Shown here piece after piece: positions 37,319 to 40,644 of a stretch of DNA of 64,000 nt (positions are counted from its first letter, which is position 1; every line of letters begins with the position of its first letter). The position numbers were made by a program, and so were the translations under genes. Source of the DNA: Burkholderia stabilis (lineage in GTDB: Bacteria > Pseudomonadota > Gammaproteobacteria > Burkholderiales > Burkholderiaceae); contig NZ_CP016443.1 in the NCBI RefSeq assembly GCF_001742165.1, positions 2,418,001 to 2,482,000 on the forward strand. Reading direction: 5' to 3'. The notes beneath the pieces are model-generated. The model was not told the origin of the DNA. It saw only the letters and a list, made by a program, of their open reading frames with translations, and did no database searches.

Positions 37319-39031
37319 ATGATGCTGAAGAACCCTGCGACGAAGTACCGACCGTTTACGCCCGTCAACCTGCCGAACCGGATGTGGCCGTCGCGCACGA
37401 TCACGCAAGCGCCGATCTGGATGAGCACCGACCTGCGCGACGGCAACCAGTCGCTGTTCGAGCCGATGGACGCGACGCGCAAGATGCGGATGTTCAAGAC
37501 GCTGGTCGCGATCGGTTTCAAGGAGATCGAGGTGGCGTTCCCGTCGGCGTCGGAAACCGACTTCAACTTCGTGCGCGAACTGATCGAAGGCGGCCACATT
37601 CCCGACGACGTGACGATCGAGGTGTTGACGCAGGCGCGCGACGACCTGATCGAGCGCACTTTCGACTCGCTGCGCGGCGCGAAGCGCGCGATCGTGCACC
37701 TGTACAACGCGACCGCGCCGGAATTCCGCAAGATCGTGTTCGGGCTCGATCGCGACGGCGTGAAGCAGCTCGCGGTGAACGCGGCGCGCACGATCAAGCG
37801 CTTCGCCGACGCCGCGACCGATACGCATTTCACGCTGCAATACAGCCCGGAAACCTTCACGGCGACCGAGCTCGACTTCGCGAAGGAAGTCTGCGACGCC
37901 GTATTCGACGTATGGCAGCCGACGCCCGAGCACAAGGCGATCGTGAACCTGCCGGCCACCGTCGAAGTCGGCTCGCCGAACTTCTACGCGGACCAGGTCG
38001 AATGGATGCACCGCAACCTCGCGCGGCGCGATGCGCTGATCGTGTCGGTGCATCCGCACAACGATCGCGGCACCGCGGTCGCGGCGGCCGAACTCGCGGT
38101 GATGGCCGGCGCGGACCGGATCGAGGGCTGCCTGTTCGGCAACGGCGAGCGTACCGGCAACGTCGATCTCGTTACGCTCGCGCTGAACCTGTACACGCAG
38201 GGCGTCGATCCGGGCCTCGATTTCTCGCAGATCAACGAAATCGCGCGCACGGCCGAGGAATGCACGCAGTTGCCGATCCATCCGCGTCATCCGTACGTCG
38301 GCGACCTGGTGTTCACCGCGTTCTCCGGCTCGCACCAGGATGCGATCAAGAAAGGCTTCGCGGTGCAGCGCCCCGACGCCGTGTGGGAAATGCCGTACTT
38401 GCCGATCGATCCGAGCGATCTCGGCCGTACTTATGATTCGATCATTCGCGTGAACAGCCAGTCGGGCAAGGGCGGCATCGCGTACCTGCTCGAACAGGGT
38501 TATGGCGTTGCGTTGCCGCGCCGCCTGCAGGTCGATTTCAGCGCGGCCGTGCAGCGCCTGACCGACGACAGCGGACACGAAGTGTCGAGCGCGCAGATCT
38601 GGTCGCTGTTCCAGCAGGAGTACGTGGAAGGCGATGCGCCGCTGCACTATGTCGGCCATGAACTGTCGGAGCGCGACGGCCGCGAGACGATCGTGCTGAC
38701 CGCCGACGTGCACGGCGAGCGCCGCGTGCTGCGCGGCGAAGGCAACGGTCCGCTCGACGCGCTGATGCACGCGCTGCGCACGCCGCTGAAGATTCAGCAC
38801 TACGAGGAACGCGCGTTGTCGCAGGGCGCGGATGCGAAGGCGATCGCGATCGCGGAACTGGCCGGGTCGGGCGTGCGAGGCAGCGCGTTCGGCGTGGGCA
38901 TCGACGCGAACCTGACCACCGCGTCGATCCGCGCGGTGATCAGCGGCGTCAACCGCGCGTATGTGCGCGCGGACGAAGCGGCGCAGGCGACGTTTTTTGC
39001 CGCGCAGCCCGCGGTGAAGGCCGTCGCGTAA
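37319..39031 (+). CDS. leuA: 2-isopropylmalate synthase
   Basis: 570 residues, the long form typical of actinobacterial and Burkholderia second-copy enzymes. The catalytic barrel begins with STDLRDGNQSLFEPMD and carries the metal-binding HPHNDRGTAVAAAE and GNGERTGNVDL; a C-terminal regulatory domain follows (IVLTADVHGERRVLRG). It condenses acetyl-CoA with 2-oxoisovalerate, the first step of leucine synthesis. The ATG at 37319 has GAGGA upstream. The last 34 codons (from 38930) lie in a 145-bp sequence repeated after the Fic gene. Confidence 0.95.
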   Translation: MMLKNPATKYRPFTPVNLPNRMWPSRTITQAPIWMSTDLRDGNQSLFEPMDATRKMRMFKTLVAIGFKEIEVAFPSASETDFNFVRELIEGGHIPDDVTIEVLTQARDDLIERTFDSLRGAKRAIVHLYNATAPEFRKIVFGLDRDGVKQLAVNAARTIKRFADAATDTHFTLQYSPETFTATELDFAKEVCDAVFDVWQPTPEHKAIVNLPATVEVGSPNFYADQVEWMHRNLARRDALIVSVHPHNDRGTAVAAAELAVMAGADRIEGCLFGNGERTGNVDLVTLALNLYTQGVDPGLDFSQINEIARTAEECTQLPIHPRHPYVGDLVFTAFSGSHQDAIKKGFAVQRPDAVWEMPYLPIDPSDLGRTYDSIIRVNSQSGKGGIAYLLEQGYGVALPRRLQVDFSAAVQRLTDDSGHEVSSAQIWSLFQQEYVEGDAPLHYVGHELSERDGRETIVLTADVHGERRVLRGEGNGPLDALMHALRTPLKIQHYEERALSQGADAKAIAIAELAGSGVRGSAFGVGIDANLTTASIRAVISGVNRAYVRADEAAQATFFAAQPAVKAVA

Positions 39032-39074
39032 GCGACGCGGTGACGGTCGCGCCGGCGGGGTCCGGCGCGGCCGC
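38930..39074. repeat. 145-bp direct repeat, left copy (leuA 3' end)
   Basis: Identical to 40500-40644 except at two positions (39052 and 39061); the first 122 bases are identical. It covers the final codons and stop of leuA and 43 bases beyond. Together with the right copy it encloses the Fic gene. Confidence 0.95.
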
Positions 39075-39223
39075 GGGCATCGATGTCGTCGCTATGTGGC
39101 CCGCGTTGCCTCAAGGCGGTTTCCGATCGTGGAGCTCGAATTTGCACAAAGGCGTGAAGGGGGATTCAACATAATTTGCTGGCCCCAATTAATGTGACCC
39201 TTGCTACACGGGCGTTTGCGGGC

Positions 39224-39236
39224 AAGTGATACACTT
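39224..39236. promoter_or_regulatory. AAGTG-ATA-CACTT palindrome upstream of the Fic gene
   Basis: A 5-bp inverted repeat with 3-base centre, 38 bases before the Fic start. The Fic protein has a C-terminal winged-helix-like part, so self-control through this site is conceivable. It is short, so chance is possible. Confidence 0.35.
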
Positions 39237-39273
39237 CCTTATCATGTGAAGTCTAGATAACGTAAAGTGAATC

Positions 39274-40440
39274 ATGCTTACATTTGTCCACCATAACCTG
39301 CGAGTGCTGAACCCTGGTTTCGATTCCCCGTTGGTTGACGTATTGACCGAACTGGAGCATCTCAGAAGGTTGCAGATATCGGGCACGACGCCCCCAGCGC
39401 TGTACTACCAGATGAAGAGCATCTTCCACATCATGGAGAGCCTGGGGTCGGCACGGATCGAGGGGAACAACACGACGCTCGCGGACTATGTCGAGAGCCG
39501 GATCGAAGGTACGGCAAGTGCCAGTGATCACCTGAAAGAAATCGCCAACATCGAGAGGGCGATGGCATTCGCCGAGGATGCGGTGAATCGTGAGACACCC
39601 ATCACGGCCTCTTTTATTCGCGAGTTGCATCACATTGCGGTCTCGGATCTTGAGCGAGAAGGCGACCGCACGCCCGGCGCATTTCGGACGGGGCCAGTAC
39701 GCATCAGCAAGTCGAACCATATTCCCCCCGAACATATCGCTGTACCAGAGTACATCGACGAACTCGTCGATTTCATCAATGGCGACGATCCACCCAAATA
39801 TGACTTGATGAAGGTCGCGCTTGCACATCATCGCTTTGGCTGGATACATCCGTTCTCGAATGGTAACGGTCGAGTCGTGCGGTTATTGACGCATGCAATG
39901 CTGATCAAGTACGGGTTTCGAGTTCACTCCGGCGGTGATCGCATCCTCAATCCGACAGCGGTCTTCTGTAATGACCGCGAGCGTTACTACGCCATGCTTG
40001 CGGAGGCGGACGCGGGAACGAACGAGGGGCTCGAGGTATGGTGCGTTTACGTTCTCGAGGGCATTTTGGATGAACTCAAGAAGGTGGACCGGTTGGCGGA
40101 TTTTGACTACTTAACCCGCTATATCCTGGAACCGGCCCTTGCTTATGCTCGCGAGCGTCGTCTAATCACACCATTAGAGTATGGCGTGTTGCTGAAAGCG
40201 GTGAAGCTCGGTGAAGTAAAGTCGGCGGATCTCGCTGACGCATTGCCGGGCATGTCTTCTACTCAACGGACGTATCAAATCAAGAAGCTCGTTGAGCGCC
40301 AGATGCTTCAGCCGCTTGCCGAGGGCGCACGCACGTATATGGCCGGCTTCACAAACAGCTTTCTGCTACGGGGTGTATTGCAGGCGCTTGCCGATAACGG
40401 CTTTGTCTCCGATCAGCTTTCTGGCGTTGCGCGACATTGA
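39274..40440 (+). CDS. class II Fic family protein (AMP-transferase type)
   Basis: 388 residues. The Fic core HPFSNGNGR (192-200) is intact, with the catalytic H192. The inhibitory helix motif SARIEG (59-64, E63) lies in the N-terminal domain, which defines class II and implies self-inhibition without a separate antitoxin. A C-terminal winged-helix-like region follows (about 290-388). Fic enzymes transfer AMP from ATP to target proteins. Codon use is less GC-rich than in neighbours. No strong ribosome site precedes the ATG. It is the only gene between the leuA repeats. Confidence 0.92.
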   Translation: MLTFVHHNLRVLNPGFDSPLVDVLTELEHLRRLQISGTTPPALYYQMKSIFHIMESLGSARIEGNNTTLADYVESRIEGTASASDHLKEIANIERAMAFAEDAVNRETPITASFIRELHHIAVSDLEREGDRTPGAFRTGPVRISKSNHIPPEHIAVPEYIDELVDFINGDDPPKYDLMKVALAHHRFGWIHPFSNGNGRVVRLLTHAMLIKYGFRVHSGGDRILNPTAVFCNDRERYYAMLAEADAGTNEGLEVWCVYVLEGILDELKKVDRLADFDYLTRYILEPALAYARERRLITPLEYGVLLKAVKLGEVKSADLADALPGMSSTQRTYQIKKLVERQMLQPLAEGARTYMAGFTNSFLLRGVLQALADNGFVSDQLSGVARH

Positions 40441-40499
40441 TACGTCAAACCGTTGCGCAAGCCAGCGGTGCGACGGCGCCGCGCGTCACCGCCAGCTTT

Positions 40500-40644
40500 C
40501 GCGCGGTGATCAGCGGCGTCAACCGCGCGTATGTGCGCGCGGACGAAGCGGCGCAGGCGACGTTTTTTGCCGCGCAGCCCGCGGTGAAGGCCGTCGCGTA
40601 AGCGACGCGGTGACGGTCGCGTCGGCGGGGGCCGGCGCGGCCGC
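40500..40644. repeat. 145-bp direct repeat, right copy (displaced leuA 3' end)
   Basis: A second copy of the leuA 3' end, including codons and stop. Upstream of it the leuA frame continues for a few codons as recognisably LeuA-like but diverged sequence (VTASFRAV against TTASIRAV), then homology ends. The copy also encodes, on the opposite strand, the C-terminal tail of the LysR gene. Confidence 0.95.

What the first reader, a model, noticed from the sequence alone, without database searches (positions are those of the whole stretch)
38930..40644. Fic gene cassette enclosed by a duplicated leuA 3' end
The last 34 codons of leuA plus 43 bases beyond occur twice (38930-39074 and 40500-40644): 145 bp with two mismatches, enclosing 1.4 kb of visibly lower-GC DNA whose only gene is a class II Fic AMP-transferase. 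The reading frame of leuA is intact at the left copy, and the right copy keeps a diverged few codons of LeuA upstream of the identical part (VTASFR against TTASIR). This is what remains when an element enters the end of a conserved gene and brings its own copy of the end, but no integrase is present. It may be a hotspot where cargo genes are swapped by recombination between leuA ends.
Basis: partly seen in the sequence, partly recalled or inferred. Interest (0 to 1): 0.82.

Follow-up and report, generated by a model that had tools for sequence, protein, structure and literature searches.

The report
Fic gene behind a copied leuA end
In one Burkholderia genome a gene for a Fic protein (an enzyme type that tags other proteins with AMP) sits between two near-identical copies of the tail of the leucine-synthesis gene leuA, most likely a scar of ordinary recombination at a spot where related species keep different genes, rather than the trace of a self-moving element.

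Summary
The repeat is real: 38930-39074 and 40500-40644, 145 bp, two mismatches, enclosing 1425 bp whose only convincing gene is a Fic protein (55% GC; window 66%). The DNA just after this leuA is variable in Burkholderia. Of 34 leuA loci compared, 15 continue into the lysR 3' end (11 with lysR intact: the empty site), 8 into another gene, 6 into a LuxR/AraC/NRPS-type cluster or parts of it, 4 into other DNA, and only the window into Fic. Fic is in 1 of 65 genus genomes. None of the other 33 loci has a second leuA end scoring above the control maximum. No tyrosine-integrase domain lies in the window. The 187 bp after the left copy recur in one relative (G031), also directly after leuA; the right copy continues natively into lysR. 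Best reading: two alternative leuA-downstream arrangements joined in tandem by one homologous exchange in the leuA end and one illegitimate joint at 40499/40500. E. coli experiments gave such duplicated gene ends (109-950 bp). The 'diverged codons' are within chance. Hotspot part supported; site-specific element not supported; new member of a known kind.

The parts
37319..39031 (+). leuA, 2-isopropylmalate synthase (570 aa), intact; this leuA has a long match in about half of the genus genomes searched
   Evidence: Pfam HMGL-like, IPMS_D2, LeuA_dimer; NCBIfam PRK03739 and TIGR00970 above cut-off; long match in 32 of 65 genus genomes, own included
38930..39074 (+). left copy of the 145-bp repeat: leuA 3' end, stop codon and a G+C-rich hairpin
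39075..39273 (+). left spacer; 39076-39262 is homologous (71%) to the DNA directly after leuA in genome G031, where no Fic gene follows
   Evidence: 2 of 65 genomes at E 1e-6, the window's own included
39274..40440 (+). Fic family protein, 388 aa: HPFSNGNGRVVR motif (from H192) and SARIEG motif (59-64); nearest solved relative by sequence is 7xux (CccR)
   Evidence: Pfam PF02661 1.5e-18; alignment of 12 sequences; PDB match 4.3e-148; paper naming 7XUX as CccR
40441..40499 (+). right spacer, origin unknown; proposed illegitimate joint at 40499/40500
   Evidence: other matches in 65 genus genomes are weak and scattered, best E 2.4e-4; not alignable to leuA above chance
40500..40644 (+). right copy of the 145-bp repeat, 98.6% identical to the left one; its hairpin extends into the following native DNA
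40519..41574 (-). lysR-type regulator; its ORF as called ends inside the right leuA copy; first gene of the lysR / araC / outer-membrane efflux / HlyD / MFS block (to 46797) that follows leuA directly at the empty site
   Evidence: lysR region found in 15 of 65 genus genomes at E 1e-60, own included

Best explanation
The locus is a tandem join of two alternative arrangements of the DNA after leuA: 'leuA-spacer-Fic' and 'leuA-lysR-efflux'. Most likely a DNA fragment from a closely related strain carrying leuA end-spacer-Fic entered a cell with the leuA-lysR arrangement. One exchange in the leuA end was homologous. The other joint (40499/40500) was illegitimate and fell inside the leuA end. This happened either by trimming, circularisation and a single crossover (Campbell type), or by homology-facilitated illegitimate recombination. 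leuA stayed whole, the Fic gene was added, and a 145-bp leuA scar remained in front of lysR. Shown: the repeat, the native context of the left copy in G031, the native context of the right copy in 10 genus genomes and B. arboris, the absence of a PF00589 integrase in the window, the rarity of Fic. Inferred: the donor strain, the direction, the order of events, and that Fic stood next to leuA in the donor. The Fic protein itself is probably an AMP-transferase of the CccR type (inferred from sequence alone).
For: The two copies are 98.6% identical, while the leuA ends of other genomes are at best 92.4% identical to it. The spacer after the left copy lies directly after leuA in G031, with homology running on from the hairpin. 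The right copy runs natively into lysR as in 11 empty-site loci. The right end of the repeat is the point where these two arrangements diverge, so it need not be an insertion edge; the joint of unknown origin at the repeat is 40499/40500. No PF00589 integrase in the window. Precedent: in E. coli conjugation, 56 of 60 Lac- clones gave the PCR product diagnostic of a duplicated lacZ end; 14 were sequenced (109-950 bp), explained by single crossover of a partly trimmed circle; the other 4 were illegitimate joints (PMC3240628, section 12 read). Passages of PMC5361080 propose the same one-homologous, one-illegitimate route for stacked T6SS modules.
Against: The G031 link rests on one genome and 71% identity; a 250-bp remnant of a Fic element in G031 would look the same. 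That homology ends 11-12 bp before the Fic start codon, as if G031 had lost Fic. No genome with leuA-spacer-Fic but without the right copy was found, and further strains of the species are not held. In 83 other Fic loci (at least two of them the same place twice) no LeuA relative was found. The left arm of the hairpin pairs over 7 further positions, 6 of them with bases beyond the right copy's end (-41.1 against -29.4 kcal/mol), so the whole repeat may derive from the lysR arrangement, which would need gene conversion or a copy event. Both papers stress that illegitimate joints of this kind are rare.
Confidence: 0.6

Rival explanations
1. A site-specific integrative element (or one moved in trans by an integrase elsewhere) entered the leuA 3' end and brought its own copy of that end, as islands do at tRNA and some protein genes; the integrase has been lost or was never carried.
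For: Geometry: gene intact at one side, direct repeat of its 3' end at the other, low-GC cargo between, empty site elsewhere. The genome has 14 PF00589 matches above cut-off that could act in trans.
Against: Nearest PF00589 match about 179 kb from the repeat; none of 33 other leuA loci shows a second leuA end above the control maximum although many carry other DNA there; the left flank occurs natively after leuA in G031; no LeuA relative in 83 other Fic loci.
Confidence: 0.13
2. Break repair with a long staggered end: the 145 bp are a filled-in target duplication of the native leuA-lysR junction and the 1425 bp were captured as one foreign piece.
For: Both repeat edges coincide with the insert edges; the complete hairpin belongs to the lysR context; the copies differ at only two sites.
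Against: The insert's left 187 bp would by coincidence be DNA that lies directly after leuA in G031.
Confidence: 0.17
3. Assembly error or collapsed heterogeneity.
For: Near-identical direct repeats are a classic trouble spot.
Against: The assembly has 3 contigs, the copies differ at two positions, and each joins unique DNA. Not tested with reads.
Confidence: 0.05

Closest known systems
Single-crossover insertion that leaves a duplicated gene end during conjugation in E. coli (PMC3240628; section 12 and passages read)
   Same: Direct duplication of 109-950 bp of a gene end around inserted DNA; one homologous and one arbitrary joint; no site-specific recombinase
   Different: Laboratory plasmid and lacZ; here a natural locus, donor unknown, gene left intact
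Stacking of T6SS effector-immunity modules in Vibrio cholerae by proposed homology-facilitated illegitimate recombination (PMC5361080; passages read)
   Same: New cargo enters beside a conserved anchor; older cargo is shifted downstream, with a 3' remnant
   Different: There the remnant is of the exchanged effector gene; here it is of leuA, which stays intact, and only one stacked case was found
Integrase-bearing islands at 3' ends of genes (general knowledge; only a search listing was seen)
   Same: Cargo between a gene and a copy of its 3' end
   Different: No PF00589 integrase nearby, no recurrence of the repeat in 33 other loci
CccR, Fic effector of Yersinia pseudotuberculosis, PDB 7XUX (PMC9755527; start of abstract and passages read)
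   Same: Best PDB match by sequence over residues 3-380; catalytic histidine number 192 in both
   Different: Secretion, FtsZ target and regulatory role of the window protein are untested; [quoted passage not shown]

Membership tests
Site-specific integrative element at a gene 3' end | carries or lies near an integrase | tested here: not met
   Only Fic as convincing gene in 39075-40499; no PF00589 match in the window, nearest about 179 kb from the repeat. Serine recombinases and transposases were not searched
Site-specific integrative element at a gene 3' end | direct repeat of the gene end flanks the insert, target gene intact | tested here: met
Site-specific integrative element at a gene 3' end | empty site in relatives | tested here: met
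   leuA-lysR junction in 10 of 31 genus loci and B. arboris
Site-specific integrative element at a gene 3' end | same end-repeat around other cargo in relatives | tested here: not met
   0 of 33 other loci above the control maximum of 40.1 bits; best downstream 33.7 bits (L047, just over the control's 95% point of 32.8), best anywhere in a locus 36.5 bits (L068, upstream)
Single-homology insertion scar (Campbell type or HFIR) | near-identical repeat of part of a gene with an arbitrary edge at one side | tested here: met
   98.6% identity; edge at 38930, inside leuA
Single-homology insertion scar (Campbell type or HFIR) | the inserted DNA's homologous side is native to the gene's neighbourhood in a relative | tested here: met
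   spacer after leuA in G031, one genome only
Single-homology insertion scar (Campbell type or HFIR) | donor strain with leuA-spacer-Fic and no second leuA end | tested here: inconclusive
   none in 65 genus genomes; plasmid records hold no Fic relative of 60% or more; further strains of the species are not held
Class II Fic protein | Fic motif HPFx[DN]GNGRxxR | tested here: met
   H192-R203 HPFSNGNGRVVR; motif recalled
Class II Fic protein | N-terminal inhibitory motif [ST]xxxE[GN] | tested here: met
   S59-G64 SARIEG, invariant in the 12 aligned sequences; motif recalled
Class II Fic protein | AMP transfer to a protein | not testable with these tools
   needs an enzyme assay
Insertion hotspot | variable content at one side of a conserved gene, conserved neighbour at the other | tested here: met
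   at least 14 changes of downstream neighbour type on the leuA tree of 34 rows, five of them forced by classes with one member; lectin gene upstream in 15 of 18 loci with at least 1150 bp of upstream sequence, the window included

The most novel reading that the evidence does not exclude
The 3' end of this leuA is a recurrent, integrase-free cargo-stacking site in Burkholderia: cassettes (Fic, an ABC-3C-type unit in G006, the cepR2-like cluster, the lysR-efflux block) enter by one-sided homology at leuA, and short leuA-end scars mark each stacking event; the window and the leuA-end remnant beside the efflux block in G022 would be two such scars.
Probability: 0.2. Interest if true: 0.5.

Novelty: new member of a known kind. 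Interest (0 to 1): 0.3.

Why it matters
If right, it is a natural, recent case of how bacteria add cargo next to a conserved gene without a mobile element: two competing arrangements end up stacked, and a gene-end scar records it. It also warns that a duplicated gene end around a cargo gene is not by itself evidence of a site-specific island. In other species the same site appears to hold the cepR2 quorum-sensing cluster, an efflux block and an ABC-3C-type unit.

Tried and rejected
Rejected: att-type element (no PF00589 integrase nearby, no recurrence). Rejected: diverged leuA codons before the right copy (P about 0.1). Led nowhere: origin of the right spacer 40441-40499, whose other matches are weak and scattered (35 of 65 genomes at E 0.01, best foreign E 2.4e-4); a spacer homologue in L054 that looked plausible by eye but scored within the shuffle range; a LeuA relative beside Fic in 83 other Fic loci; plasmid or phage carriers of close Fic relatives (all below 60% identity); RNA families (none at the gathering score); a paper on leuA as an island site in Burkholderia (0 papers with all four terms; none of the 10 listed of 30 papers mentions leuA; listing only). 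Weak inner support of the leuA tree (14 of 31 inner branches open) makes the counts of changes rough.

Against my reading or set aside: the G031 spacer scored 32 in L068, above all 60 shuffles (maximum 25); this was not followed, so 'only G031' holds for the BLAST searches. G022 (L069), with only a leuA-end remnant, was left out of the tree and of the 34-locus counts. L053 (1341 bp upstream), L067 and L068 (2500 bp) lack the lectin match; 16 of 34 loci with under 1150 bp upstream were not tested for it. Repeats were sought only within the fetched locus or 15 kb downstream; for L046 and L157 much less downstream sequence is held. The scan of L067:13000-13300 used an arbitrary frame and says nothing.

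Full report
What is there. The window's leuA (37319-39031) ends in a 145-bp stretch (38930-39074) that recurs at 40500-40644 with two mismatches, both in the non-coding hairpin after the stop codon. The genome (8.5 Mb, 3 contigs) shows no third long copy. Between the copies lie a 199-bp spacer (50.8% GC), a 388-aa Fic gene (39274-40440, 55.0% GC, third positions 64.5%) and a 59-bp right spacer (67.8% GC); leuA has 65.8% GC and 87.9% at third positions.

The gene. The Fic protein has the Fic motif HPFSNGNGRVVR and an SARIEG inhibitory-type motif (motifs recalled). Its best PDB match by sequence is 7xux (E 4.3e-148), which PMC9755527 deposited as CccR, a secreted Fic effector delivered by a type VI system that AMPylates FtsZ and needs His192 (start of abstract and passages); the window protein has its Fic histidine at the same number. 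Named relatives (the best 80 of 156 kept, 60-79% identity) are scattered over Pseudomonas, Methylobacter and others. Fic of this type is in 1 of 65 genus genomes (E 1e-30) and in 4 of 398 of a family sample (E 1e-100), the window's own counted in both. No LeuA relative was found in 83 other Fic loci, flanks of up to 10 kb, at least two of them the same place twice.

The site. 32 of 65 genus genomes, own included, have a long match to this leuA. The other 31 were fetched, plus B. cenocepacia and B. arboris records from PLSDB. Of the 34 leuA loci, 15 continue into the lysR 3' end (11 with intact lysR, the empty site: 10 genus genomes and B. arboris; 4 with a lysR remnant of 58-112 bp), 8 into a small gene called X here, 6 into a cluster or parts of a cluster of LuxR (Autoind_bind, GerE), AraC, aminotransferase and condensation-domain proteins, 4 into other DNA, and the window into Fic. 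I assigned these classes by hand; among the four 'others', L042 begins with a piece of X and L061 with a piece of the efflux block's MFS gene. L054 (G006) starts with an ABC-3C-type unit (CTD12, MC8, DUF2326). The classes need at least 14 changes, five forced by one-member classes, and presence of the efflux block at least 12, on a weakly resolved leuA tree. Upstream of leuA the fucose-binding lectin gene is present in 15 of the 18 loci with at least 1150 bp of upstream sequence, the window included.

The variable contents match known genes. In B. cenocepacia the lectins are BCAM0184-0186 (PMC3426421, passages), and an AraC regulator, an NRPS and an outer membrane efflux protein adjacent to cepR2 are BCAM0189, 0191 and 0199 (PMC2753556, passages). 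That fits a cepR2-type cluster lying between leuA and the lysR-efflux block (whose genes match LysR, AraC, OEP, HlyD and MFS families); that BCAM0187 is leuA and BCAM0188 is cepR2 is recalled.

The repeat is not general. No other leuA locus has a convincing second leuA end. Within 15 kb downstream the best of the other 33 scores 33.7 bits (L047), against a control of 272 random leuA pieces with a 95% point of 32.8 and a maximum of 40.1; anywhere in a locus the best is 36.5 bits (L068, upstream of leuA); the window scores 253. G022 is a related oddity: it lacks the leuA body but has a degraded leuA end (83 bp at 80% plus the 145 bp at 86%) in front of lysR and the efflux block, beside feoB (FeoB_N, FeoB_C). 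In G028 and G015, and in the drafts G001 and G027, the feoB region lies on another contig than leuA.

How it arose. The bases after the left copy (39076-39262) occur in one other genome, G031, where they also follow leuA directly and lead to gene X instead of Fic (71%, E 4e-23). The bases after the right copy are the native leuA-lysR junction. So both right edges of the repeat are native, and the unexplained joint at the repeat is the left edge of the right copy (40499/40500), with a further change of homology near 39262, 11-12 bp before the Fic start. The simplest account is a join of two leuA-downstream arrangements by one homologous exchange and one illegitimate joint. An E. coli conjugation study obtained such an outcome unexpectedly as the main class: 56 of 60 Lac- clones gave the PCR product diagnostic of a duplicated lacZ end; 14 were sequenced (109-950 bp), and the class was explained by single crossover of a molecule that had lost part of the lacZ end (PMC3240628, section 12 read). 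Passages of PMC5361080 propose the same principle for stacked T6SS modules.

Against this. Only one genome carries the spacer by BLAST; its homology ends just before the Fic start codon, so G031 may have lost a Fic gene, which would fit either reading. The hairpin of the right copy is complete (-41.1 kcal/mol, z -6.3) because its left arm pairs with bases that lie almost all beyond the repeat, whereas the left copy folds less well (-29.4, z -1.2). That suggests that the repeat sequence evolved in front of lysR, and it leaves room for a copying event such as break repair or gene conversion. Illegitimate joints are rare in experiments. Site-specific integration is less likely: no PF00589 match within about 179 kb, no recurrence, a natively placed left flank.

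Verdict. A real and recent recombination scar at a real variable site, with a Fic gene of CccR type as cargo. The mechanism class is known, so interest is modest; what is new is the site and its record of stacking.

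Noticed in passing
L069 12853-13080 (G022): Degraded leuA 3' end directly before lysR-efflux, next to feoB and without a leuA body; in several other genomes feoB lies on another contig than leuA, so the efflux block seems to have moved with a piece of leuA.
   Followed up: partly
L064, L065, L066, L156 between leuA and lysR (about 11 kb): A LuxR/AraC/aminotransferase/condensation-domain cluster that fits the CepR2-regulated genes of B. 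cenocepacia sits exactly at the leuA-lysR junction.
   Followed up: partly
L054 3376-6356 (G006): ABC-3C-type unit (CTD12, MC8, DUF2326 proteins) shortly after leuA, a candidate defence system at the same site.
   Followed up: partly
window 39029-39080 and 40599-40650: The hairpin after the leuA stop codon is complete only at the right copy, where 7 further pairs form, 6 of them with bases beyond the repeat.
   Followed up: partly
window 35024-36456: Two PA-IIL lectin genes (one with a Bc2l-C N-terminal domain) upstream of leuA; a lectin match lies upstream of leuA in 15 of 18 loci tested.
   Followed up: partly
L048, L057, L062, L063 just after leuA: Remnants of 58-112 bp of the lysR 3' end without the efflux block, suggesting repeated loss of that block.
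   Followed up: no
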